Positions 30,034 through 57,128 of a stretch of 64,000 bases of DNA are shown piece after piece. The position numbers and the translations under genes are program-made. The stretch lies in the NCBI RefSeq assembly GCF_003073045.1, contig NC_037590.1, positions 7,032,016 through 7,096,015 of the forward strand. The letters are read 5' to 3'. A model generated the notes under the pieces. That model saw only the letters and a program-made list of their open reading frames with translations. It searched no databases and was not told where the DNA came from. Each line of letters opens with the position of its first letter. The first letter of the stretch is position 1. Source of the stretch: Pomacea canaliculata. Taxonomy: Eukaryota; Mollusca; Gastropoda; Architaenioglossa; Ampullariidae.

Positions 30034-33000
30034 CAACAGACGACCTGATGAAAGACGAAACTCACAGCTTTATTAGAGTCGACTTAGACATGGTCTTCGA
30101 CATCGGTCAATGGGAGATAATCACGAATCTGTAAGTATAGAGCAGTTCTTGTTTACTTCCCTTTCTGTAACTCATCACGAACTGAGTCCTGTATGGTATA
30201 GAGTAAAACAACAGAATGCGTACTGTAAATGCAGTAACGTGTGAGGAAAATGTTTATTCTCAGAATAAAAAGAAGCAGATATTTCTCATGTTATAAATGC
30301 TTTTGGTGTAATATTTATTGTGCGTTTATTTTTATTTAATTTCTTTCCTGTAATTGTCTGTCCTTTAGCAACAAAAGCTACAGCTTAAGTCCATCTTTCC
30401 AAGCTCGTCCTCCGAGAGGAAGCCTCAGGAAAGCCAATGATAGACCCAGGCGACAGGCAATCAAACATGGAGTTCAAGGGGCTAAGCCTTGGACCAACAA
30501 TGTCATTCCGTACGAGATTGATTATAGAGATTTCTGTGAGTAAGAAGTGAATTGGAATGGAAAGTAACCGGGGTCAGGGGTTATATGTACTGAGAATTAG
30601 CAAGCAGTCATGCTGTAGCATTTCAGTTGCTTATGACAGTGAGTTGAAGATGGTAGTCAGCAAAAATAGTTAATACATGGCAGAGATTTTACTATAATCA
30701 CCGTTTTACAGCTTCTGAGTCCACTCTTATTAGAAGTCACAGTTCATTCACCCGTTTCTGGTTTTATTTGAGGGTGACTTTTGGCGTTAGTGTGTCTTTA
30801 TGTACATGTGTGTTTCTATGGATATGTATAAGCACACATAACTGCGTGCGTGAAAATTTGTCAATGCATGAGTGTATGAGTAAGCGCATGTTCATAGGGA
30901 AGGAAAAGTGTGTATATGTGTGTGTGCATGACAGCAATAATTTCCTTTTAACAAGCCTCCCTTAATAAAGTTTTACATGTCTTGTCTTTGTTCACGGATT
31001 TTAGATGGCCGAGGCCTGCAGATAATCTACGATGCCATGGACTACTGGATGAGGTTCACTTGCTTATCTTTCATCCCAGCCACGTTCAACCACAAGAACA
31101 AAATTCGCTTTATAGATGGCGACGGGTAAGTTAATATGAATATCAGCTAGTTGCTTCCATCTTACACATACCTGACTTCAATTGGCACTTTCCTGAACTG
31201 TAGAGCTATATTGCTTATACTGTTCGGCATCTTTCTGGAAATCATCATGCGAGAAAGCCTTTATGACCATCACATGTCCCTTTTCATCGGTGAGAAGCAA
31301 ACTATATTGGCCTGATGGAAGGCACAACCAATAAACTGCAAGAAGTTACCAATAAACTGACAGACAGTGCAAATACGTATAGCATGGAGACCAGCATGTC
31401 AAGAGAACTTGGGAACTTCCCTTTCTAAAGTTGCCTGCTCCACGATAGACCTCCACATCAGGATTACAACAGCAACGACAGCAATAGACAGGATGTGACA
31501 AAGTAATACAATAAGGTTTGCTACCACATACAGACTATACAAGACTATTCCTCGTCGTTCTCATTCTTGCCTGTTTCTTTGTTCTTATTTTACAGATGCT
31601 GGTCACATGTTGGTATGCTTGGCGGCAGACAAGCGGTGTCGTTAGGACGAGGATGTTTACATGTAAGCGCCAAAAGAACTGTATAAATATATTCACTGAG
31701 TTGAACAATGGATATAATGTAAGGAAGTGTGGTATCATCATTATCGTCATTGCCATTATCACCAGCACATCAGCAGCAAACACAGCATCACCTTTGCTTT
31801 TGTTTTAAAGGTTACACCTAGGATGAGTCTGTCATTTAAATTATAAAAAAGACAAAGTCACACCCACCAAACTTATTTCTAGGTATGCAAATATTCACAA
31901 TACCTTAACTGCGATCTCGTTCTTGACATATGGAAGGAAAAAGGTGACTTCCTCTTTTAAGACGAAATAAGTTCCTTTAAATACATGTAGTTACGAGGAA
32001 ATATCAGTCTACATAAGGATCATATTTATAAACACACATCAGCAACACAGACTGGAGGCACCGCTGACTGTGACCCCGTGGATCCTACTACAATACTTAC
32101 TGGTGACTGTGACCCGTGGATCCTACCACAATACTTACTGGTGACTGTGACCCGTGGATCTTACTACAATACTTACTGGTGACTGTGACCCGTGGATCTT
32201 ACTACAATACTTACTGGTGACTGTGACCCGTGGATCCTACTACAATACTTACTGGTGACTGGTTCGTGCACCATGTGACGTACTCTGGAGGTACAGAGAC
32301 TGAAATACATGGATCCTAGTGTGACACACAGAATATACTGACGACTGTGGATTCCTCTGTGACGGGCAACTGACGGACTGTTGACGGACCCATTGATTTT
32401 GCGATGACACGTAACTAAGGTACACACTACTGATAGTGATTGTGACACATGGACCCTGTCGTCTTCTTGTTGCGCATGCGTGCTCCGTGCTGGTGGCAGC
32501 CAGGGGTCGTGGCTCACGAACTGGGACACGTCATCGGCTTTTTTCACCAGCAGTCGAGGCCAGATCGCGACGAATACATTCGCATCCACTACGAGAACAT
32601 CGCTAACCATCTGAAGGACAGCTTCACGAAGTTAAGTTGGGACAGAATCGCCGATCTCGGTGTTCCCTACGATTACCTCAGCATCATGCACTATGGAAGC
32701 AGGGTAAGACCCAGTGTTCAGCATGAACTGTTTCCGGTAACTGTATCACATCCATCTGTTCATTTTGTCCACCTGATGATCGTTAATAACAGTGTGACTT
32801 GTCGATTCGCAATTTTGTTTCGCAGGCTTTCTCGTATAATGGAAGGATCACTATAGAAACGCGAGATCGCTCCTATCAGAACCTGATCGGTAACAGGGTC
32901 GGCCTCAGCTTCCGCGACATCAAGTCCACCAACCTCCTCTATAACTGCAGGCCGAGTGAGTAAACAAATATCGGTACTGTTCTTCTCTAATTTGTGTTGC

Positions 33001-36832: not shown

Positions 36833-39800
36833 ATGTGTCCGACAATAGTGAGTCTTTTTTTTTCTACAATTCCTGAATTTTATTATTTTCATGTTTTTGT
36901 AGATATTGCTTTCTTTAGTCAAAGGTTGATCATTCTTCATGTTGCTGTGGTTGCCGTTCGTAGCTTTATATATTATATTACACATCCAAATATTATATAT
37001 TGCATATTAACTGCAAAATATTCCTTTTCTGTGTGTTCTCATTCACTCATTTCTTTCCTGTGTAGAGTTTCATGTTGTGCAAAGTTTGCTATCCTTGAAG
37101 AAATATCTTTACAGCTGTCACTTTAAGGTTGTAAGAGGAGTAGCAATGATGTATGGATGCTGTAGTCTGAGCCTACAAACAGAATCTTGAATGGTTTTGA
37201 CATCACTTGTCAGTTGACTCCGGTTTATATGTTACTACTCCACTCTATTTCTCACTTTCTCTTTATGCGTTTGTGGTGGGTGTGCGTCGCTCTGTCTCTC
37301 AGTGGTGCAAATCAGTTAAGTGCTCACAAAACTATTTTCTGGTCCAAAAATAAAAGTCTGTTGTATGCGACAGGTACATCTGACATACCTGACATTGTTC
37401 GTGGCACACATCACTACACTTTGTGGCGGTTCCACAAGTCCGAGCTGGGACAACTGCTACGGTCGCCACTGCGAAGTGGGAGAGTACTGCGGCTTGCACG
37501 AACCATTCCGGAGTTGTCGCCCTTGCACAGTCGTCGCCGTCTGGTGCGACAACACGAAGTTTGTGGAGGAGAACTTCTCCCCGTGTCTGCAGACATGCAA
37601 GAGTGAGTCTCTAAAGTCTGTTTAAGTCTTGCTGATCATAAAAGAGCATAGCGATGACTGAGACCAAAATGAAGACGATGATCAAAGCCTCCATGACGAT
37701 GACAATAGAAATGTAGCTTTAGTAGCGGAGAATGCGAAATATTTGACTGGTGGGAGAAAAACAATTGAGGAGGATATTCGCGTAGTGCATTGGCAAAGAA
37801 TTCACGGATGTTCATCAACTGTTACAGATAGATGAGCCAACTAAATGAAAGTCAGTTGCTGGAGACAGATAAACCATTTACAAGAGCATTACATTTAGAG
37901 ATAGACGCATCAATCATATAAAAGAGAATATTGAAAGAGGAACCTATTAACAAACATTTACATTTGGATGCAATGAACCAGTCACATGATCGTCAACTAC
38001 TACAGACGAACCAATTACATGAACGAGGATTGTTAGAGATAGACCTACAAACCAAAATAACAATGTGGATATGGATAATATATATATATATTCAACTGTG
38101 CTTATCAATAATAATCTCTAATCATCACATGCTTTCCTGTCTTTGTGTGTGTTTTACAGTCCTCTTGTTGGAGTTACAGACTTCTCAGATTAGCAAAAAA
38201 ATACGCGAGCTACAGAAAAAAGAAGGAACTGAAGGTGAACATTTGCAAATACCTGACGCCCTCTTCTCTCTTTCGCATTTATCGTCTGTCTGTCCTCGGG
38301 TTCTTGTTCACATGAGTCCCATGAGTATATATGTGTGATGTATGTGTGCAGACTGTAGTGTACCGATGTCGTGTTGACCTCTGCCCACCCATGCAAGTTT
38401 ATGAGAAGTATGTTGCTGAATACGAAATATTTCCTGACGTGGTCTGCGACTACGTGCTAGAAATGGAGGGACAAAGCAACTGAAATGCACTTTGACCAGA
38501 AGAGAACGAGCTCAGGTTCTAGTTACGGGCTTCGTGCTCACCTGCTTTATTTAGTAGGAAAGTGCTTCCACCTTGAAGAGATTTCGCACTAGGGGATAGG
38601 GGGACCGGAGTACCCGGAGAAAACCCCCGACGCCCGTCCCTGCGGGTAGGTGTTACATACAGACAGTGTCCAGAGACGAGATGTGAAGCCTGTGTAACCC
38701 ACAAATAAATCTGTAGTCTTCATTCAGTGTGTTTAGTCAGTCGCAGTTTAAACACACATAATGCTTTGGCCTTAGTCGTCATTGTAATTCAGCTAATGAT
38801 TACGGGAAAGCCCGTAAGGGTAAACGGATCTGCGTCTGGTCATCATTACGTGGTGGTCATAATGAGCCATGTGGCTATTACCTCCCCATGCTCACCCAAC
38901 AGCTGCTCTGCAAAAAATAAGTAGCTTATCAGAGGAGAATGATGGTGGAAATAGATTAGAAACTGCCTTTCACATTTAGTACCATAGCAACAGTAAGACA
39001 CTTATATTCACTGTTCCTGCATCTTTTAGGCTGTGGGACACTTTACCTGACATTTTAACCTTTATGCAACGTGTTCTCGTCCTGCAGAGCCATGCGCTTG
39101 ACTCTGTTTTCCAGATGGAGATACGACAACTTGATTGCTTTTTTGTCTTGCAAAAATACAATGGTAATTTCTAGAAATAGTTCATACAGTTTTACTAATT
39201 ATTGCAGTCAATATTGCTTCTCACTGGCTTGCGTAAAATTCAGCTCGACAAGTAAACAGGGATCTGTACGGGAATTATGACACACGGGAAAATCCGATTT
39301 GAGCAAGTTTGACTGAGGATGGCGAATGTCTGCTGATGCTAATGTAGTCAACACGGCATTTAAGGCTGCAGGACGACTTTTACTCCAGGCTAAAGTCAAT
39401 AGGAAAACCCGATCTGAGTAAACGTGAGTAAGTATGACTCTGTAGCATTTTCTAATGTAAAACACACGTCATGCACCTTTGATACCTTCGGATAGTGGCA
39501 GTCAAAGGTCATATGACTCAGTGAGAGGAGCGGCTCCGTATGATGTCTTGGCTTGTTTTTAAGTTTTTGTCGCCCACAAGAATTTTTTCGTTGATGAAGC
39601 ACAGTCGACAGATGTGACAAAGAGACAACAATCATAATTTCAACCAAAATACACATCACCCGAGCTGTATCAACCTCCAGTCTGTTGAATTGACTCCGCC
39701 ATGACCATACCCTCCCACGTAAAACAACATCATCCCAACACCAAAAGTCGAGGATTTTATTATGGCTGAACCTTGTCTCTCCACAGTGGTCGAGCTGTCT

Positions 39801-41014
39801 AAAACAGATGCAAGGCAACAGAAGGGGGTGTGTTCTTACTCGGGACTCTGACAATAACAATATCCTGCACCAACTCGTCCTGTCCAAATCAGCTCTGGCT
39901 TCTCTCTTCACTGGCTGAGTCCAGTCTGCGGTCTCTGACTATCATTTATTTGCTGTTAACCTTCTAAAATTACTGTAATCGCCTCAGAAATAAGTTTCTT
40001 GCAATATAAAACTCTTTGGCCAAGCTTTGAAAACAAGTCACTCTGTTTCCGGCTAACCTCATCATATAGACTCCATCTCAACCGTCACAGCCTTTACTAT
40101 ACTTTCAAAAGATGGTGTAGCCAAGGGATTTGTGTTATCCACTTACAGATCAAAGATGATATCGAGATATTGATATCTTTTTTTTAGGAACTGATATCAC
40201 CCTCAAGGTTGCAGCTGGAATCCTGGCAGGAATTGTGTTTGTAGCAGTTGTGGTCTTTTGCACGATGAGAGTGCGCCGTCGTCGGGAAGACAACCTCCCG
40301 CTTCAAACAGCCACTGCATGTGAGCTCTTCTTCATTCTCTCACTTTTCGATGATAATGTAGATGATGGACTGTGTCTTGGCTTGGATGAGAGCGGTAGTT
40401 GTCTGTCGACCATTTATTGCTCGGTTGTGTCCGGGTGTGGTCAGATGCCGGAGAACCTGTTTATACGGGAGTGTCACGTGACGTCTGTTCTGTCTGGGAC
40501 GACCTCCCACAACTTATGAAATGGGGGTCAGGAATGTTCCAAGAATTTGACATCTTTGAAACAAATATAAGATACGAACAAGAACTTGTAACAAATATTA
40601 CATCTGAGCTTGTACAGAGCGGCACTCCAACTAAAACCAGGCTCAGAGCGCTTAACAAACACAAAGGACAGACTAAAATCCTGAGGTTCATAATCAGTTG
40701 TAGCCTAGGTGCTTAAAAGTAAAAGACCAAACCATCTTGAAAGCTTCTTTCCTTCCGCAGGTCGACGAAGACGCGGTCTCCGCGCCTTGTGGAACAAACT
40801 TCTCCGCAGCATGAGATGGCCGCGACGTCCACCCCAGTCACCTGTCACCTGCATGAACGACGTCGGCTACACGGTCGTGGCTCCTCCCCCTGATGTACAG
40901 AACCAGAGCGGCGACGACTGCCTGCAAAGTTCAAACAGGCTTGTCATTCCTAATGGTGGAATAGCTCACGATGCTGAAGACACTAAGGACTTCATCCTGA
41001 GTTCTGTCCCCTAA
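36833..41014 (+). CDS. TNFR-like (BCMA/TACI-type) single-domain type I membrane protein, paralogue 1
   Basis: Five exons: 36833-36847 (MCPTI), 37374-37602, 38160-38234, 40188-40319 and 40761-41014 (TAA); phases 0, 1, 1, 1; 234 residues. The signal peptide is split between exons 1 and 2 (VHLTYLTLFVAHITTLCG). The ectodomain has eight Cys: NCYGRHCEVGEYC, SCRPC, VWC and SPCLQTCK. The core C-x3-EY-x8/9-C-x-PC-x(n)-C-x(n)-C-x3-C resembles BCMA and TACI cysteine-rich domains (family call inferred). Exon 3 is a charged, helix-like linker (ISKKIRELQKKEG). Exon 4 holds the span LKVAAGILAGIVFVAVVVF followed by RVRRRR. The tail has an ITIM-like VGYTVV and ends with VIPNGGIAHDAEDTKDF, a motif shared with paralogue 2. 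It could receive a TNF-family ligand; no death domain is present. Confidence 0.72.
38590..38700 (-). mobile_element. SINE-like fragment related to the copy at 26410
   Basis: The plus-strand text GAGACGAGATGTGAAGCC matches GAGACGAGATCTGAACCC of the SINE at 26410-26638 (15 of 18), with similar sequence beside it (ACATACAGAC against ACATGCAGAG). The adjoining GGAGTACCCGGAGAAAACCC is a word I recognise from dispersed animal repeats. No A-box is visible, so the head is truncated. It lies in the intron between exons 3 and 4 of paralogue 1. Confidence 0.4.
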
Positions 41015-42861
41015 GTCTTCCTCTAAAACGAGAGAAAATGTCTCTCTGCACTTTTTTGTTGATCATCATCATTATCCTCCTCCTCCTCATCATCATCATC
41101 ATCATTGCTGTAATTGTTGTTATAATTACAGATTCGCCAGTCTAGGAAACATAACTTACAAGAACAGGGTGAGGTTTTGGAACAACTACCAGTTTTTTTT
41201 TAATGAAACGATGCGCTCTTTTTTTTTTTCGAAAACCGTGAACGTGTTTAAAACCAATCCTTACATTTTTTGTTTGCTTAATCTAAATTTCTGACAGAGC
41301 CGTTACCTACATTCTTATCTGGCCAGTTTTCTCGCTTGTTTGAATGAAATTCGTTTTCCTTATTTACATCTGTTTTATTAACTTTTCATTCATTTTAGGC
41401 TAGTATTAAAATTCATATCCGGACAAACTGTTTCAGCAGTACAGAAGAACTACATTTATTTACAAATGTATTTATAAAACTGGCGAGCTTTCATTTTGTG
41501 TACATTAGAGCTGGTCTCTAAACACATGGACGTGGCAATTAAGACTGGTTGTGACGAAAGATAATTAATTCTCTGTACGCGTCTGACAAAGGGAGAGAAC
41601 ATGAACAAGACTAGTGACTGGGTTGTGAGATTGTGTGTGTGTGCGCGCGCGGGCGTGCGTGCACGTGTATGGTGGCTGGATGGAAAGAGATTTCAAAAAA
41701 GAGAGACAGAGAGCATAAAGGGAGGCATGCATGCGCGCATCCAGATGATATATTTTTTTCGAGGGAACGAGGTGTATGAAAATGCTTTTAATAAAGGTTT
41801 GAAAAAAGTGACTCAAAATAAATGAACTTTATTGGGTGAATGAAGATGACAGCAATGGCATGATAAATTTTTATATTTATGTAAATAAAAAAAAGATCAC
41901 TGACAAGTGTGAGCGGCGAAAGAGAATCGGGTTTTATTGTTCTCTCGTTCTGTCACTCCTCTTGTTTCACTTTAAAAGAGAAGCGGTGGGGGTAGGAGAC
42001 CCAGACAGACGTGGAGGAGATCGGTCCACAGCAAGGTGGAGGCGGAGGCAGCCGGGATGACATCGACCCAACTGAAGAAGGACACTCATAACCTGATCCG
42101 ATGACGTGGTTGCGGCCCCACTCTCCCCTGGGGGGCAAACAGGACTAAGAAGAAGAGGTGGGAGTAACAGAAGCTTCTAGAAAGTATGACATCGACCGTT
42201 AGAATCCGGTTTACTGTTGACACAGTGAGGTGTTACTATAAATGTCTCGTGGGCCTGGGCCCTGTGACTTTAGAACTGGTAGACCCAAACAGCGAGCGAA
42301 CGAATAGGTAAGAGAGATGAATAATGTGTATACAAAACTGTATAAATACATTCACAACTACTTCTGTATTCTGTGATAACCTGTCATGGACATTATCCGT
42401 TACTACAACAGAGTACCTAACACTTACTTCTCCAAGTTTGAGATTTCTGTCATTTCAAGGGATGGCATCGTGAATGAAGATGTGGGGAGGAAATGAGAGA
42501 ACGACAGCTATGAGGCAGTGAAGGAAAGTCAGGTGGCTGGGACATGGTAATGATGGTAGATGACAAAGAACATTCGCGATTACATTCAGTAGAGGCAATA
42601 ATCACGTGTCTTCTTGCTTCAAACCTTTGTAACAAAGCGAGAAAAATTGATTACTCGGGTGGCCCTGGCTGCTCGACATGAAAGTACATGCACACGGGTG
42701 GGAATCCCCGATGTTGATCATGTGGCTTTATAAAGCAGAGCCACAGTCGGCTTGCATGTCTTGAGGCCGGTGACGATCGTCTGCTGTGGTTCGACGATAA
42801 AATCCTCTGCTCAACACTGCTTCAGCTTCACACCAACGTCTACCTTCAGTCGTGGTCCACA
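41015..42861. other. 3' UTR of paralogue 1 and promoter side of paralogue 2
   Basis: Non-coding. It holds a TCC/TCA trinucleotide run (41080-41105), a candidate poly(A) signal AATAAA at 41790-41795, and a GT/GC run at 41630-41670. Short open frames lack family features. Confidence 0.45.
42729..42734 (+). promoter_or_regulatory. TATA box of paralogue 2
   Basis: TATAAA within GGCTTTATAAAGCAGAG, about 130 bp before the start codon that ends exon 1. With a start near 42760 the first exon would be roughly 100 nt with only the ATG coding. Position fits; no transcript evidence. Confidence 0.5.
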
Positions 42862-44851
42862 ATGGTAAGAATGATTGTCTTCTTCGCTCACTCAAAGCTT
42901 CTTCCTGTTCCTCTGTCTTCTATCGCTGTTCCTCTTTTTTAAACGTTCTTGATGCCCCTCTTCAGAAGATTGAGATGACCAGTCGCTTTTAGCATCCTTT
43001 TAAATCACTTTTGACAATTATGTTGGCGTTAGTTTAGTTGTTTTCCTTTTCTTTGTTCCCCTTTTTTCTTTGTGATGTGTCTGGAGGTACCTAACTACCT
43101 AGAAATATCATTCACTGGCGGGTCCATACTTTGCAGATCTTACCCTCGAGCTGCAGGACACACCTGGTGTGTCACCATATACACCTGGCAGTGTATGTGA
43201 TGTTGTTATCGTTCAACACTGGGGTAACAGCGGCACCTGCACGTGGGGGGAAGTCCCGCAGCCCCAGCTGGGACAACTGCTACGGTCGGCACTGCGAGGT
43301 GGGGGAGTATTGTGGGTTGAACGAACCTTTCCTAAGTTGTCGTCCATGTACGCACATCGCAGTCTGGTGCAACAACACCAAATATGTCGAGGAGCATTTT
43401 TTCCCGTGTCTACAGACGTGCAAACGTAAGTCGATCATGATGATTGTTGGTAGTTACAACAACAACAGCAAAAAGCAAATTAGTAATAGTTATCTGTATC
43501 ATACATGAAAAATTCTACACGCAAAACAAAAATCCAAAATACGAAAAGAAATGAACATTGCACCTTTCTCGAAGACGCAGCAACCACTACCCTGCACAGT
43601 GTCCCTCTACTTCCTTGGAAGTGAAGTGCTGGTCGATGACAGTTAATTAAAATTAGTTAATTATTTCATTATTATTTAATTATTTATTATTTAATTATTT
43701 CATGTTCTAGCGTGTATTCATTCGCTCTTCAAACATTGAAAACTTTGACTTCAAGGAAAGTCTCCATTTTTACTTTCTTGCAGTGCTTCTTCTTGAAAAA
43801 ACGTTTTCCGGATTACTGAACAAAACATCCGAGCTGGAGGCCAGACTGAACGAACCGACAGGTGAGTGATTTTGAGGATGTGTCTCAAAGATGTGTGAAC
43901 ATGCAAGGCTGCTGGTGTATGTGTGGGTGAGTGAGGCTCGATCTGAATATTTATGGTACATATGAGAACACAAATTTAGTTTCTACTTCCTCGGAAAAGA
44001 ATTCCGACACAAGAAAATTAAATGTAAAACGGAAATCTCAAATGCGGATGGTTAGAGAATCAAAATCATTCTTTTTCAGAAGATAACACTATCCTCAAGA
44101 TTGCGGTTGGGTGCACAGGGCTGATGGCACTTATTGCACTGTTTGCTGTTGTCTTGGCATGTGTGACTGGAAGAAAACCTTACCGCCAGCTGCAGCATCC
44201 TCAGATGACAGCTATCGCACGTGAGTGGTTCTCCTTCAAGCAAAACTCATAAAGATGGCGCTGCTTACATACACACAGAGCTGAAGAGAGTCGGACAGTG
44301 TGCGTGGGTCATAATCTTGTCAGACACGTGAATGTGGGAGCATGTTGACGACAAAGACGACGACGACGACGACGAACAAGCAGACCAGCAGATGAAATAT
44401 TGAACCTCGTCTTTTCTATCTGACGATGCCTTTTCTGTCATCCATCATCAATTACGACATTATATCGTGACGTCATATCATCATCAATGTGCTGGTTGGA
44501 AAAAGTACGACACGAACATTTGTAACCTTGACGACAACTGCTCGTTATTTTTCTGGGGAAAACCGTTTATAAGTCTTTCTGTCTTCACCAGCGCCTGCCA
44601 GGAAGTCTGTGGTATTGCTGTTCAGCAAACATCTGTGCAGCATGACACGATGTTGTTGTCACAGACAGCCAGACATCCACCTGAACTCTCGCGGCCAACC
44701 ATACGGCCTCGCTGAGACGGCCATCAGAGAAACCATCGACGACGACGACAGAAGCTCCAACATGGTCATCCCTGGTGGCGGAACGGCCCATCAGCCTCAG
44801 GACGCCAGGGATTTCAACACAGACTCATCTCTTCTACATTTCTCTGTATGA
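42862..44851 (+). CDS. TNFR-like (BCMA/TACI-type) single-domain type I membrane protein, paralogue 2
   Basis: Five exons: 42862-42864 (only the ATG, then GTAAGA), 43137-43425, 43784-43861, 44080-44220 and 44592-44851 (TGA); phases 0, 1, 1, 1; 256 residues. The signal region includes HLAVYVMLLSFNTGVTAAPA. The eight-cysteine domain (NCYGRHCEVGEYC, EPFLSCRPC, VWC, FPCLQTCK) is almost identical to paralogue 1 and has an N-glycosylation site NNT. The linker exon (LLLLEKTFSGLLNKTSELEA) adds a second sequon, NKT. The span is ILKIAVGCTGLMALIALFAV. The tail has a cysteine cluster (CSMTRCCCH, possibly palmitoylated) and a C-terminal VIPGGGTAHQPQDARDF shared with paralogue 1. The V-x-Y-x-x-V motif is not kept (QPYGLA). 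Promoter TATA is at 42729. Confidence 0.72.
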
Positions 44852-47578
44852 ACTCTCAAAAAAAAAGTAAATTTCTCAACATTTACTAATGATCTGGTGT
44901 CCTCCATTTATTTCTTTAAATAGGGCACACATGCAATGTCTCGGACACGTTCACTAAAAATACTCCCTTTATTGTCATGAAGATGGGAGTTGACTAGGGT
45001 TTACACAGCTTGGTGTGTGGGTATGCTTGGAGAAAACCTCCAGTAACTTTTGTTCCCTCCACAAACTTGGATCTGTCTGTGTGCACATTGTGTGCTTTTG
45101 TGTTCTTCACTCACCTGCATTTGGACTGATATTTATTATATAAAACAGCTCATCTGATCACGCGCCGATATCGTATGTCCACATTATACGGTCAGACTAA
45201 GTTGTATGTTGGCGAGACAAGAAGTTGGTCGCTTGGATGTCAACCCAGATATCATTTAAACATTATATAAATGTTTACAAATAACCCCGTGTAGACTTTA
45301 TAGAATGTTTAAATTGTATCAGGGAAGAACTATGTAACTTAATGTGAACATGTCACATGTAGAACGATTTGATGTGAACACTTAAAACACAATACCTAGC
45401 TGTCTACAGAAGGTTGTTTGTTTATTTGTTTGAGTTGTACGCCTTGCTAGAAAATAAGGCTAGATCACGGAAAATACCAAGAAGAGCCAGTATGAGATAA
45501 TGTGTATAATTATGTTGTTAACACTTGAAAGACATGTTTATATGCTTTAGAGGATGCAGAGGATGTCTACACGTAAGAATGCTTTGTGTAAACATTTGTA
45601 TACAATTGTATATATTTGAAGTTTATCAATGTGCTTGGCCGGGCTTAGGTGAACGTTGTGTGAGCAGAGTTTGGGCAAAAGTACATGAAATGTATCTGAA
45701 TAATCTGTGTAAATACATGTGACAATGGTTGCTTTTGTAACATGCTGCATGTTTGGTCTCTGGTCATCTATCTGAGTGCTGACTTTGTGGACTAAAAAAT
45801 GTAATAAAATACTGAATTAAAATAAATAATGTAATGTGTTGAATGGATGAGCGACAGAGAAATGGATGAATGAAGTGTTTATACTTTGCTTCTTCGACAA
45901 TTTGAGACATCTATGTCTCAACTCCTCATTTTCGACTGTCTGACACAACTGCATCGCCATCAAACAATGTCCGACAATTTCACGAATTTCTTCTCTCCAT
46001 CAATAACAATCTGATGTATCTCACTCTCTCCATCAAAGACAATGTTGGGAGGCCTGACTTGTCCGCACTTTTGCAAAAACATTCATAAGAAAGATAACAT
46101 CAATAAGGCAAAAAAAGACAACAAAACAAAAAAAAACAAAACAAAAAAACACACACACATATGACATATGACGCATTTGTTGATGGCTACGTTTTTATTG
46201 CACTTTAGTTGAACATTGTGAAGGCGGCTGAAGATATCTCCTTACTCTATTTCAAAGATCGTGGTATTTCTAAGGTAGGGTTTTCAATAGTATTTATTGA
46301 ATTACAAGTCTGGCACGTATATCACATACATAAATGCATCAGCGATTCCTTCTTTTGGAGCTTCATTAAAAATGGTTAGTTACCAGTTTCAAGGACTGCA
46401 CGCTATTCTAAGAATGTTTCTTTGTAACCTCACATACTAATATATGATCATGTCTCACAAATGTGTACGTGACGGTTCTATAACAAAACAGCCAGTCATA
46501 CATAGTGACTCATCCGTTTATTGAGACCTGAAATATTTTCCTAGAAATATATGGAAACACCCCAATATAGATGCTAGTCGTCTGAAGGTAAACATCGTCA
46601 TACAGTTTCCAGGTGTGCATGAGAACACCTGACGGCGCTTACCCACCTAAACATCCTCCAGCCCCACCCCGTCAACAGTATGCGAGTCTCATGTACAGTT
46701 TGCAGAACTGGTGCTGGGTGGATGAGGTGTTCCTAAACGTGTACCCGGCATTATGTAAGAGCTCAAGCCTTCACCTGGAGATGAATGAATCAACTCGAGC
46801 TTAAGCCTTTCTATTCAACCCTCCTTGCGAGCGTGTTTGTTTGTCTGTGCGGGCATCATATGCATGCCTGTGTAAGAACTGCTCACCGCATGTTCATAAG
46901 CCGTTATCAGCAGCATCAGCTGCAAGCCTCATGTTCTGTTCGGCTTGATGTTTTTAAAAATATAAATAATAAGAACGAGAGGTTATCGGCATGAACGTTG
47001 ATTCAGCACAAGAAATCCCGAAATTAGTAAGCTAAAAAAAAAAAGTGTGTGTGTGAGAGAGAGAGAACTTTCCAGGAGCTCCAGTAACTGGTGACATCAT
47101 TTGACTCACCACTCACTGAACGATTGACTAGTGTTTGTGCCTCCATCTTCCTCTCCGTTTTATTTCTTGCCTATCAATGTATTTTCCTCCATATCTACTC
47201 CTCCAACCACACTGCGGACACATTTGATTTCAGAAAGCAAATAAGAGTGAGAGAAGAACGACTATACAGCTGACTAAAACCTTATCAAGTTATCAAGCTA
47301 ATTGTAATTATGACAATTTGACCATTTGAAGTTATTCTTTCTTGATCGCCTGTAATTCTAGTCACGATAGGAATTTTCTCACTAAACTTTCAAAACAATT
47401 ACCTGGCGATTATAAGGTTAAAGAACCTAGAGACGAGAATTTAGTCAGTTCTAAATAAAGATTATCGTGGATCGAGGTCTCGTCATTGAGGAAAAAACGG
47501 AAAATTCCGAAATTACACCGATGACACACCTACGCAGTCCTTGATGACGATAATTTCTCAAGCAAACAGGTAAACAAC
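44852..47578. other. 3' UTR of paralogue 2 and intergenic
   Basis: Non-coding. A poly(A) signal candidate AATAAA lies at 45803-45808, with more to 45835. A-rich and CA runs occur at 46120-46160. No exon of another receptor copy and no transposon ends were found. Confidence 0.45.
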
Positions 47579-47585
47579 TATATAA
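47579..47585 (+). promoter_or_regulatory. TATA box of paralogue 3
   Basis: TATATAA about 105 bp before the start codon at 47687. An ATG at 47590 opens a 31-codon frame ending just before the real start, but it lies only a few bases after the TATA box and would fall upstream of a normally spaced transcription start. Confidence 0.45.
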
Positions 47586-47686
47586 TCACTATGGCACTAG
47601 GTGGACCAGCAGCAGGCGGACCACTCACACCGACTGAGCACTACGTGGCGGAGGTTCAATCACACGATTTCTTCCAGCTTTAGAAG

Positions 47687-49767
47687 ATGGAGGTCAGTGA
47701 TTTATTAGGAAATTTGTTTGTAAATTTGACTCAAAATCCTTTTTAACATGATTGTCTCTGCATACATGAATGAGCATGAAAGTTTCTTTTCTTCTTGTGC
47801 TTTTCGGTCAGTTTACACATGAATGAGCATGAAAGCCTCTTCTTTGTGACTTGCTGTAACCCACGGGTATATATATAGAAAGGTAGTCCAGCGCTGTAAC
47901 CACACTCGTTTTGTTTCAGATTATGTCTGATTTACTGGAAATAGTTGTGGGTTGATAGCTGTAGCAATCATAGTGTAGTGTAGCTATGGGTATTCACACT
48001 CACGCCTGGTTGCATGCATACAGGTGTCACTGATAGATACGAAGCCCTCGCACCTGGTGGTGGTGCTCCTGGTGCTGACGGCACTGCAGCACTGCGTGGC
48101 GCAGGATGAGACTCCGACATTCAGCAACTGCTACGGGCGGCAGTGTGAAGTTGGAGAGTTTTGTAGTCAAAGTGAACCTTTCCACGGCTGTCGCTTGTGT
48201 ACCGAGGTGTCTGTCTGGTGCACGCAAAATATCAGTCATGTCAGAGAGAAGTTCTCTACCTGTCTGACTGTTTGTGAACGTAAGTCTTCTTCGCTTCTGT
48301 CCAGAAATGAATGAAATAGCGGGATGGAGAGAGAAGTGAGACAAACATTGACCAACATATTCACCCTGATGTTCGTAAGCAAACAAAGAAGAAATATGAG
48401 AAATAAAGGAAGGTAGCAGTCCCGAGGTATCACCGCCATACATCATCGTCCTCATTGTCATCATTTCATGGACTGGCTCTGTGCTCGCAATCATTTGTGC
48501 TTGTACATTTTTTTTAAAGCTTTACTTTCTGCTCTCTGTTCCAGTTTTACTTGCAAAACGTGACATCAAGACTATGCAAAGTGAGGATGGGAGAGATGAA
48601 AGAGAGCATAAGACACCTCGAATATACAAGGTTGGCAAATAAAATCAAAATCCGCTTTTAAGGACAATTAAACTATTTGTTTTTGGGTGTCGAATATCTT
48701 ATCCTCGTCTTCGCCTTACAGCAAAGAGCATGCTAAAACTGTCAACTGTGTGTTACTGGGTGGATGGGTAGGGGAGTGCTGATCCTGGCACCACGGGTTA
48801 TTGTGTGGAAAGACCTACTAGCTTGTCAAACGTTTAGATATGATTATCTATAATCTCACATCGGAAATTCCCGCAGTGCATAATGATGCGTTAAGCGACT
48901 CGCCCTGTATCCGGATGTTTACCGTGACTGCTCTCCAGGACACAATCACTGCTGTAGTAAACTCTGCATAGGTCACTTAATGACCTCGTGCTTGTCACAG
49001 TTTGATTTTGACTTCCTTCTGTAAGACTCCTCTGACAGGGCAGCTCTATACAAGTGCACTCTTATCATTGTCATGCGCTTTGAGTCCGGCTGATGTTGGA
49101 GAAAGGCGCTATATGAATTTCATTATCATTATTCACTGTCCACACTATGAATGTGCATGTTCCTCATACTGTGCATGTGCATGTTCATTGTTCACACCTG
49201 TAGGCAGACTGAACTTCGGGCTATCAATAGCTGCATACATTCTTCCGGTTGTCGGCCTCATCTTGGATGTGCTGGTGGACGAAACGGGGACATGGCATTC
49301 ACCTGAATCAACCACAGCAGACGGCATGTAAGAATTATTTTTTTTTAATGATAATAACTTTCAAGGGAACAATTAATTCACCTCTCCACCCGCCATCTCA
49401 CTTTGGGCTAAATCTTACGACCAACATTGGGAATGTCTTTTAACTTTCGCAGATTATGCTGACTTCTTTTGGGTGCCCCCATAGTTTGGAATTTATTTAC
49501 AGTTATGTATGGTCATGTTCAGTGTACATCTTGACTTTGTACACAGCTGTCAAGAGAACATCCCTGAAACGCGCGCTGAAGTCTCTGTGCTGTCAACCGT
49601 GTCCTCCCCACTGCACCCGACGACGAGACCACGCCCACCAACCCGTGTGCGACCCTGAAGCCCCGTCTGTCACCTATGACCTCGTTCCTTCATCCCAGAG
49701 CAGTGCAACGACAGCGGCACAGCAGCAACAGCAGCAACAGCAGCAGCGAATCCGGCAGCAGAAGTAG
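47687..49767 (+). CDS. TNFR-like (BCMA/TACI-type) single-domain type I membrane protein, paralogue 3 (divergent)
   Basis: Proposed exons: 47687-47692 (Met-Glu), 48024-48279, 48545-48580, 49204-49327 and a last exon from 49557 (or 49547) to 49767. The signal peptide is clear (HLVVVLLVLTALQHCVA). The domain keeps all eight cysteines (NCYGRQCEVGEFC, EPFHGCRLC, VWC, STCLTVC) and a sequon NIS. The linker is short (LLAKRDIKTMQ). The predicted span is FGLSIAAYILPVVGLILDVLV. The tail is basic and Cys-rich (SLKRALKSLCCQPCPPHC), has an ITIM-like VTYDLV, and ends in a CAG-encoded polyglutamine tract; the VIP-GG C-terminal motif is absent. The membrane exon ends in phase 2, so the obvious last acceptor (49546) would break the frame; the weaker AG at 49556 restores it. 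The 3' half of the model is therefore uncertain. Poly(A) signal at 51068-51073. Confidence 0.62.
49055..49135 (+). repeat. SINE/LINE 3' tail remnant
   Basis: Contains GCGCTTTGAGTCC and AAAGGCGCTATATGAATTTC then CATTATCATTATT. This GCGC...GCGCTATATAAAT...ATTATTATT pattern is the familiar 3' tail of many animal LINE/SINE families. A second copy with the same logic is at 62630-62720. It lies in the intron before the membrane exon of paralogue 3. Confidence 0.55.
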
Positions 49768-55875: not shown

Positions 55876-57128
55876 ATGTTGCCTGAAACCGCGGCTGTTA
55901 GTACTCACGATACTGATGGTTGTGGTGGTGGTCTTGGCTGCAGTCAACCTTTACTTAAACTTGAGGAAACAGCCTTTTATGGGGACGTTCCCGGGCCACA
56001 ATTTCCCTGCCTTTCACCATTTTCCAGAAACAAAAACGACAAGGACACTAGCACCGAAAAGCCACACCACAACGCCGCCAAAGCCGCCCAAACCGCCAAA
56101 GCCGTCGACACCCAAACCTACGCCGAGGCCAAAGAGAATCCCGAAAGTTCCCGATAGACAAGCAGCTTCTGAACGCGGCGGCACAGATCCGCTTCAGTCT
56201 CGTGCCTCCCGTCCAGTCATTCCTAAACGATCCCTACTTCCAGATTGCCAGATCCGGGCAAGCATACTACAATCACTTTCGCCCTAAGGTCTTGATCAGT
56301 CCCTCGAAGGTGTGCTCTACCGCCAAGAAGGGATCACCATTGCAGCCCTTCCTGATGATTCTCGTGCTGTCCAGTTACAGATGCAGAGCCAAATTCGAAA
56401 GGCTGGCCATCAGGGCCACGTACGGATCCGTGGCCGAAGGAAACGCCTGGCCAAACAAAGAAGTGCCCGAGTCCGTCGGCCTCGTCTTTTTGTTGGGCAA
56501 ACCGCCGACGGTGAAGGCCCGTCGCCGACTGACCGCTGAGAGCCAACAATACGGTGATGTCATGATCGGGGACTTCACCGATACCTACGCCAACCTGACA
56601 CTGAAGGTTCTGTTTGGGCTTCGGTGGATGGTGGAAGCGTGCCCGCACGTGCAATACGTCCTGAAAATCGACGACGACACCTTCGTGAACATCCCACTGC
56701 TGCTGGCCTTTCTGCTTCACGGCGAAGACAACGCTATGTACGGACATGTCTACTTCTCCTCTCGAGTGTTCCGCGGAGGTAAATGGGCCGTCCCCAACAA
56801 TGTGTACCCTCTGGGCCTCTACCCTCCATACTTGTCTGGCACTGCCTACGTGGCTTCCATGGACGCCGTCAAGAAGGTGGTGGATGCCTCCGTCCATGTG
56901 CCCATGCTCCCCGTGGAAGATGCCCACGTCACGGGTATACTTCCTATCGTGGCCGACGTACGGCGTATCTCCACCTACGGCTTCACGCACGTGCTGGACC
57001 ACAAGCCAGACTTCTGTGAGTTCATGCTCAACAAACGCCTCGTGGGTAACCGAATGAGAAAGAAGGACAAGATCCATGCGTGGAATTTGATGAAGATTGC
57101 TGACCGGAGACATTGCTCCATGCAATGA
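55876..57128 (+). CDS. GT31 beta-1,3-glycosyltransferase (galactosyltransferase family), frame broken between stem and catalytic domain
   Basis: After an acceptor at 55875 one frame encodes a type II membrane anchor (LLVLTILMVVVVVLAAVNLY) and a proline/lysine-rich stem (PPKPPKPPKPSTPKPTPRPK). The catalytic domain lies in another frame from about 56150: AIRATYGS (RxxIRxTW-like), VFLLGKPP, YGDVMIGDFTDTYANLTLK, the metal-binding DDD in YVLKIDDDTFVN, YPPYLSGTAYVAS and PVEDAHVTGI, ending HCSMQ. These are the family's conserved blocks in order. GT31 enzymes add Gal or GlcNAc in beta-1,3 linkage in the Golgi. Total length (about 400 residues) is normal. A one-base shift near the junction separates the halves; because the catalytic half is intact, an assembly error in the C/A-rich stem is as likely as a real lesion. 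The initiating Met may be in an upstream exon or at 55916. AATAAA at 57177-57182 gives a very short 3' UTR. Confidence 0.82.

What the first reader, a model, noticed from the sequence alone, without database searches (positions are those of the whole stretch)
36833..49767. Tandem cluster of three BCMA/TACI-like single-domain receptors in an invertebrate
Three genes share the same five-exon plan and the domain pattern NCYGRxCEVGE(Y/F)C, EPF, CRxC, VWC, CLxxC. The core cysteine spacing and the Glu-Tyr/Phe after the first core cysteine recall BCMA and TACI, receptors of BAFF/APRIL, while two extra N-terminal cysteines and a signal peptide set them apart. Invertebrates have many TNF ligands but few described receptors of this compact type. 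The array could be an expanding immune receptor family, possibly diversified in tails more than in ectodomains.
Basis: partly seen in the sequence, partly recalled or inferred. Interest (0 to 1): 0.8.

Follow-up and report, generated by a model that had tools for sequence, protein, structure and literature searches.

The report
Snail Grindelwald-like TNF receptor gene cluster
Three neighbouring snail genes, with seven relatives elsewhere on the same chromosome, look like small cell-surface receptors of the TNF type that most resemble the fly receptor Grindelwald, and they are a different set from the snail's own BCMA/TACI-like genes.

Summary
The three genes are real. Their cysteine-rich exon is under purifying selection (A/B dN 0.07, dS 1.96). 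A phase-1 transmembrane exon follows in A and B; in C its join to the tail is unresolved. The assembly fits Pomacea canaliculata. Seven more copies lie 3 Mb away, giving ten. A compact TNF-receptor type is supported, but BCMA/TACI is not the closest class by sequence. The domain has eight core cysteines; its cysteine plan and the aromatic residue before Cys3 match Drosophila Grindelwald, the only PDB sequence (of 177,635 distinct) that the ten-copy profile reached at E up to 10 (E 0.31, weak alone). Grindelwald outscores 2000 of 2000 full shuffles; BCMA, TACI and Fn14 do not stand out. As a control, a third cluster of seven six-cysteine domains is assigned to BCMA/TACI by the same procedure. 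The classes are not sharply apart: one six-cysteine domain also matches Grindelwald. Low-confidence models give a hairpin plus helices, and all entries listed by the structural second look were BCMA, so fold evidence supports a TNFR-type domain without separating the two. Likely mechanism: trimeric TNF ligands cluster these receptors and recruit TRAF; ligand and signalling are inferred.

The parts
37365..37602 (+). Copy A, CRD exon from an in-frame ATG to the donor (true exon start unresolved)
   Evidence: hydrophobic N-terminus
37455..37598 (+). Copy A, eight-Cys domain, spacing 4,5,8,2,6,12,3
38160..38234 (+). Copy A, candidate Leu-rich stalk exon (LLLELQTSQISKKIRELQKKEGTE), phase 1-1
   Evidence: inferred from splice sites
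40188..40319 (+). Copy A, TM exon, phase 1-1, basic stop-transfer RVRRRR
40761..41014 (+). Copy A, candidate tail exon; C-terminal NRLVIPNGGIAHDAEDTKDF resembles B
43251..43425 (+). Copy B, conserved part of the CRD exon to the donor (exon start unresolved)
43278..43421 (+). Copy B, eight-Cys domain, spacing as A
43784..43861 (+). Copy B, candidate Leu-rich stalk exon, phase 1-1
44080..44220 (+). Copy B, TM exon, phase 1-1
44592..44851 (+). Copy B, candidate tail exon
48105..48279 (+). Copy C, conserved part of the CRD exon to the donor (exon start unresolved)
48129..48275 (+). Copy C, eight-Cys domain, spacing 4,5,8,2,6,13,3
48545..48580 (+). Copy C, possible short stalk exon
   Evidence: weak
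49204..49327 (+). Copy C, TM exon candidate (124 nt; found by the relaxed rule only)
   Evidence: absent from the strict scan
49547..49767 (+).

Best explanation
The three genes, with seven paralogues 3 Mb away, encode small type I membrane receptors whose ectodomain is one TNFR-type domain with eight core cysteines, of the Grindelwald kind: a two-disulfide beta hairpin (X2) followed by a two-disulfide helical module (C2). Most likely a trimeric TNF-family ligand binds three receptors through the hairpin and the helical face, as Eiger does with Grindelwald, and the clustered tails recruit TRAF adaptors. Steps shown here: the gene family, its eight-Cys frame, constraint on the CRD exon, a TM exon after the CRD, and sequence closeness to Grindelwald beyond cysteine positions. 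Steps inferred: disulfide pairing, fold, ligand class, trimeric binding, TRAF signalling, an immune role.
For: The ten-copy profile against all 177,635 distinct PDB sequences gives one hit at E up to 10, Grindelwald 6zsy, with the eight core Cys in register. BCMA, TACI and Fn14 chains are in that library. HMM bits without null2: Grindelwald 27.0 (reached by 0 of 2000 full shuffles in each of two runs; by Cys-fixed shuffles 11 and 18 of 2000), against BCMA 10.2 (Cys-fixed 342 of 2000), TACI 9.5 (310 of 2000), Fn14 6.1 (975 of 2000). Sub-profiles agree but more weakly: the window three give Grindelwald 14.9 bits, Cys-fixed 14 and 21 of 2000. Spacing: Grindelwald 4,6,6,2,3,11,3; A and B 4,5,8,2,6,12,3; G, I and J 4,6,6,2,6,8-10,3 once their first interval and the extra Cys are set aside. 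An aromatic residue precedes core Cys3 in 10 of 10 copies, where Grindelwald Phe46 packs between its modules and is needed for Eiger binding (PMC8024323, passages and section 8 part 1). Control: the six-Cys cluster at C1:1.836-1.887 Mb, by the same procedure, hits BCMA (best E 2.5e-4) and TACI (E 0.028) and not Grindelwald. Strict TM exons lie within 3 kb downstream of 8 of 10 CRD exons, against 5 others in 308 kb of strand sequence. Both AF2 models have a hairpin then helices. Ligands exist: 13 TNF-domain matches over cut-off (two with an internal stop), six within 39 kb on C6.
Against: The PDB E-value of 0.31 is not significant alone; copy A alone, a six-copy profile and the G/I/J profile found nothing; hhalign gave probability 17% with E 0.0014 over 36 columns. 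The Grindelwald sequence as query found none of the ten copies; it found a six-Cys domain, L033 (E 0.18). L033's own PDB search hit only Grindelwald, E 0.0062, and L033 also beats its shuffles on the ten-copy profile (17.0 bits; Cys-fixed 5 and 2 of 2000), so Grindelwald and L033 lie between the classes. For E/F, G/I/J and A/B/C/D/H sub-profiles Grindelwald is reached by 64, 84 and 42 of 2000 Cys-fixed shuffles. Spacing differs at Cys5-Cys6 (6 or 7 versus 3). Models are of low to middling confidence (pLDDT 53.7 and 67.8); Foldseek gave no significant match and VIA-align listed BCMA, not Grindelwald. Eiger-contacting residues T51, E52, H66 and N67 are not generally conserved (by eye). No TRAF-like motif occurs in the A and B tails. 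No transcript evidence.
Confidence: 0.62

Rival explanations
1. BCMA/TACI-type receptors in the strict sense: the genes belong with BCMA and TACI and gained two N-terminal cysteines.
For: All entries listed by the VIA-align second look of both models are BCMA; Cys4-x2-Cys5 and Cys7-x3-Cys8 are shared with BCMA and TACI; on the window-three profile BCMA gets 7.7 bits, reached by 67 of 2000 full and 191 of 2000 Cys-fixed shuffles, a faint signal.
Against: No Pfam BCMA or TACI match in the window copies at E up to 10; on the ten-copy profile BCMA and TACI are reached by 342 and 310 of 2000 Cys-fixed shuffles; no D-x-L motif in A, B or C; a separate six-Cys cluster of the same genome does match BCMA/TACI.
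Confidence: 0.15
2. A lineage-specific cysteine-rich receptor family unrelated to TNFRs that converged on a similar Cys frame.
Against: Agreement beyond cysteines with Grindelwald, the aromatic position, secondary-structure order, TM architecture, and only TNFR entries among the VIA-align rows listed.
Confidence: 0.18
3. Dickkopf-type cysteine-rich proteins (Wnt pathway).
For: Below-threshold Dickkopf_N matches: copy H E 0.0027, copy F E 0.035, copy C E 0.37.
Against: All are below the 25-bit curated cut-off and cover about half of the domain; the genes have TM exons, and Dickkopf proteins are secreted (recalled).
Confidence: 0.04

Closest known systems
Grindelwald (Drosophila TNFR; PDB 6zsy, 6zsz, 6zt0)
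   Same: Single small ectodomain domain, eight core Cys in the same order, Cys4-x2-Cys5 and Cys7-x3-Cys8, aromatic before Cys3, hairpin then helices predicted, single TM.
   Different: Cys5-Cys6 spacing 6 or 7 instead of 3; ligand-contact residues not generally conserved; no TRAF-like motif in the A and B tails; ten copies; six of the ten copies carry extra Cys.
BCMA, TACI CRD2, Fn14
   Same: Compact CRD architecture; entries listed by the structural second look of both models are BCMA.
   Different: Six Cys in BCMA and TACI CRD2, D-x-L motif in those two, and on the ten-copy profile their scores are often reached by Cys-fixed shuffles.
Six-Cys cluster of the same genome (C1:1.836-1.887 Mb)
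   Same: Small CRD exons clustered on the same chromosome.
   Different: Six Cys; profile matches BCMA and TACI; gives 4.4-14.4 bits to the ten eight-Cys copies; some domains lie in pairs about 840 nt apart and may be two-domain receptors.
Canonical TNFR_c6 (PF00020) receptors
   Same: Superfamily level only.
   Different: None of the 49 PF00020 places at E up to 1 lies in any of the three compact clusters.

Membership tests
Grindelwald-type TNFR | Eight core Cys in the order of Grindelwald with Cys4-x2-Cys5 and Cys7-x3-Cys8 | tested here: met
   10 of 10 copies; extra Cys in E, F, G, H, I, J; Cys5-Cys6 spacing differs
Grindelwald-type TNFR | Aromatic residue before Cys3 (Phe46) | tested here: met
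   10 of 10 copies
Grindelwald-type TNFR | X2 hairpin plus C2 helical fold | tested here: inconclusive
   Right order of elements but pLDDT 53.7 and 67.8; rows listed were BCMA
Grindelwald-type TNFR | Sequence relationship to Grindelwald | tested here: inconclusive
   Only PDB hit, but E 0.31; 0 of 2000 full shuffles and 11-18 of 2000 Cys-fixed shuffles; Grindelwald query missed all ten copies
Grindelwald-type TNFR | Single TM with cytoplasmic tail | tested here: met
   Strict TM exon in 8 of 10 copies, relaxed in C and G; no transcripts
Grindelwald-type TNFR | Binds a TNF ligand | not testable with these tools
   Ligand genes are present
Grindelwald-type TNFR | TRAF2 and Veli binding in the tail | tested here: inconclusive
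   Six of ten tails scanned (A, B, D, E, F, J): PxQx[TSD] four times in D, E, F against 0.79 expected, P 0.009 before correction for four motifs; none in A, B, J; Veli site not tested
BCMA/TACI receptors | Six-Cys CRD | tested here: not met
   At least eight Cys in 10 of 10
BCMA/TACI receptors | Match to Pfam BCMA-Tall_bind or TACI-CRD2 | tested here: not met
   No hit at E up to 10 in the 3 window ORFs or in the 6 other copies scanned (D, F, G, H, I, J; E not scanned); six-Cys cluster hits in 4 and 3 of 7 at the same limit, best E 5.8e-4 and 0.0043
BCMA/TACI receptors | D-x-L hairpin motif | tested here: not met
   Absent from A, B, C; D-x-L strings in D, E, G, I lie outside the hairpin tip (positions by eye)
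Canonical TNFR_c6 | PF00020 match | tested here: not met
   the Grindelwald ectodomain itself has no Pfam match

The most novel reading that the evidence does not exclude
Grindelwald-type (X2+C2) receptors are not a fly peculiarity but a separate receptor class of protostomes, missed by the standard TNFR model, which in this snail expanded to ten copies in two clusters beside a BCMA/TACI-like cluster on the same chromosome, to pair with an expanded set of TNF ligands.
Probability: 0.4. Interest if true: 0.72.

Novelty: new variant of a known kind. Interest (0 to 1): 0.55.

Why it matters
[quoted passage not shown] I infer that searches by the usual CRD tend to miss the Grindelwald kind. If this family is what it seems, a mollusc holds ten such receptors plus a cluster of seven BCMA/TACI-like domains, none of them among the PF00020 matches, and ligand-receptor pairing in a lophotrochozoan becomes testable with a small defined set.

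Tried and rejected
Copy A alone, a six-copy profile and the G/I/J profile against the PDB gave nothing. Pfam gave only sub-threshold Dickkopf_N matches and one Opy2 match. Weak genome matches outside the clusters were read and dropped as not CRD-like: L006, L007, L032, L034, L038, L040, L044; four further places (two, two, E 0.52 to 3.7) were not read. One minus-strand hit of the eight-Cys pattern in cluster 2 is a cysteine-rich low-complexity ORF and was dropped. The six-Cys profile also listed three short venom peptides in the PDB at E 0.07-0.5, taken as chance. Foldseek gave no useful match (7ksp, 4fz1, 5eiu, E about 7-9); Grindelwald was not among the VIA-align rows, which only re-examine Foldseek's 7 and 12 top chains. 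A tree of the ten copies with Grindelwald has weak support (A/B 89, E/F 79, G/I/J 97, others 35-75; Grindelwald falls beside E/F/G/I/J at 60) and was not used. Motif counts for [PSAT]x[QE]E, PxQxxD and PxExx[FYWDE] are at chance. Literature: searches; I saw no report of a mollusc Grindelwald relative in the listings, of which (20 of 537; 10 of 26; 12 of 50) were partial. Passages only were read of PMC7674686, PMC12843592, PMC6129957, PMC9334734, PMC4979521 and PMC6684607, and of PMC8024323 passages plus part 1 of section 8. Subscription papers on mollusc TNFRs are mostly not held.
Full report
What is there. The window lies on a 45,418,568-bp contig of a 440,159,624-bp, 24-contig assembly. The published Pomacea canaliculata assembly has 440.1 Mb, 14 chromosomes and a longest scaffold of 45.4 Mb (PMC6129957, passages), so the golden apple snail is very likely; this is an inference from size. 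The pattern is not chance, and A against B shows dN 0.072 and dS 1.96, with differences at codon positions 1/2/3 of 5/4/22.

Gene plan. In A and B the CRD exon ends with a phase-1 donor and is followed by a short Leu-rich exon, a TM exon and a tail exon, all at phase 1. A strict rule (acceptor, donor, phase 1-1, hydrophobic 20-mer) finds a TM exon within 3 kb downstream of 8 of the 10 family CRD exons and only 5 elsewhere in 308 kb of strand sequence; C and G have one under a relaxed rule. The first exon and the TM-tail joint of C remain open. Tails of A and B share a C-terminal block (27 columns, 56% identical, E 2e-4 in a local search).

Family size. Searches of the genome with A, D, H, G, E, C and J and a pattern scan give ten copies: A, B, C in the window; D 10095951, I about 10102227, E 10118233, F 10126225, G 10137618, H 10145128, J about 10156283 on the same contig. 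Counts from these searches are lower bounds. E/F also show constraint (dN 0.157, dS 1.58).

What it is. The spacing of A and B is 4,5,8,2,6,12,3; Grindelwald has 4,6,6,2,3,11,3; BCMA has 12,2,3,8,3 and TACI CRD2 14,2,3,6,3. Grindelwald's ectodomain has eight Cys in four disulfides, an X2 hairpin followed by a C2 helical module, a combination its authors call the first example, with Phe46 packed between them and needed for Eiger binding (PMC8024323, passages, section 8 part 1). All ten snail copies have an aromatic residue at that place. The profile of ten copies reaches a single PDB sequence, Grindelwald, E 0.31; smaller profiles reached none. That alone proves little. Shuffle tests add that the score exceeds every one of 2000 full shuffles in each of two runs and all but 11 and 18 of 2000 Cys-fixed shuffles, while BCMA, TACI and Fn14 are reached by 342, 310 and 975 of 2000 Cys-fixed shuffles. 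Sub-profiles of the family give Grindelwald weaker margins, 8 to 84 of 2000 Cys-fixed shuffles across five sub-profiles.

An internal control. The Grindelwald query itself led not to the family but to a six-Cys domain at C1:1.836 Mb, L033 (E 0.18). That domain belongs to a cluster with seven such domains, some in pairs about 840 nt apart, so perhaps five genes, three with two domains if a stop-bearing fragment (L049) is counted. Their profile reaches BCMA (best E 2.5e-4) and TACI (E 0.028) in the PDB and not Grindelwald, with three venom peptides as further weak rows, and members hit the Pfam BCMA and TACI models in 4 and 3 of 7 cases at E up to 10 (best 5.8e-4 and 0.0043). So the same procedure does recognise BCMA/TACI relatives in this genome, and it sorts the window's genes elsewhere. 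Against too sharp a division: L033 alone matches Grindelwald at E 0.0062 and beats its shuffles on the ten-copy profile (17.0 bits; Cys-fixed 5 and 2 of 2000), and the six-Cys profile gives Grindelwald 21.4 bits (63 of 1000 Cys-fixed shuffles reach it) and copy F 14.4 bits (20 of 1000).

How it probably works. By analogy with Eiger and Grindelwald, a ligand trimer would bind three receptors and gather their tails. The genome has 13 TNF-domain matches over cut-off, two with an internal stop, and six of the 13 lie within 39 kb on C6. Tails of D, E and F hold PxQx[TSD] strings resembling TRAF sites (4 observed in six tails, 0.79 expected, P 0.009 uncorrected); A, B and J hold none. The ligand, the adaptor and an immune role remain inferences. 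Residues of Grindelwald that touch Eiger are not generally conserved, so the ligand cannot be named.

Verdict. A real, constrained gene family; TNFR-type single-domain receptors with fair confidence; of the Grindelwald kind with moderate confidence; not BCMA/TACI in the strict sense. None of the 49 PF00020 matches at E up to 1 lies in these clusters. In the held library I saw no description of Grindelwald relatives in molluscs (listings partly capped).

Noticed in passing
C1:1836013-1886850 (L051-L057): Third cluster: seven six-Cys CRDs whose profile matches BCMA and TACI; a stop-bearing fragment lies at C1:1879675 (L049). Pairs at 1874101/1874941 and 1885898/1886734 are about 840 nt apart, which would fit two-domain receptors like TACI.
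   Followed up: partly
C8:8016117-8016230 (L050): Another six-Cys-like domain with a hydrophobic start, E 0.325 to the six-Cys query.
   Followed up: no
C6:16151921-16190842: Six TNF ligand domain matches over the Pfam cut-off within 39 kb.
   Followed up: no
C1:10102227, 10137618, 10156283: Copies I, G, J have ten Cys, with two beyond the Grindelwald frame including a CC pair; E, F and H have one extra Cys.
   Followed up: partly
C1:10099239 (candidate tail exon of copy D): Tail holds PAQCTD, resembling the TRAF-binding PxQxTD of TANK (recalled).
   Followed up: partly
window 40913-40993 and 44738-44815: Similar C-terminal tail block (VIPxGGxAHxxxDxxDF) in A and B, with no other match in the window or the second cluster; function unknown.
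   Followed up: partly
window 32446-32853: Astacin metalloprotease exon, Pfam E 1.3e-26.
   Followed up: no
window 56052-57128: Galactosyltransferase (PF01762) gene, Pfam E 5e-40.
   Followed up: no
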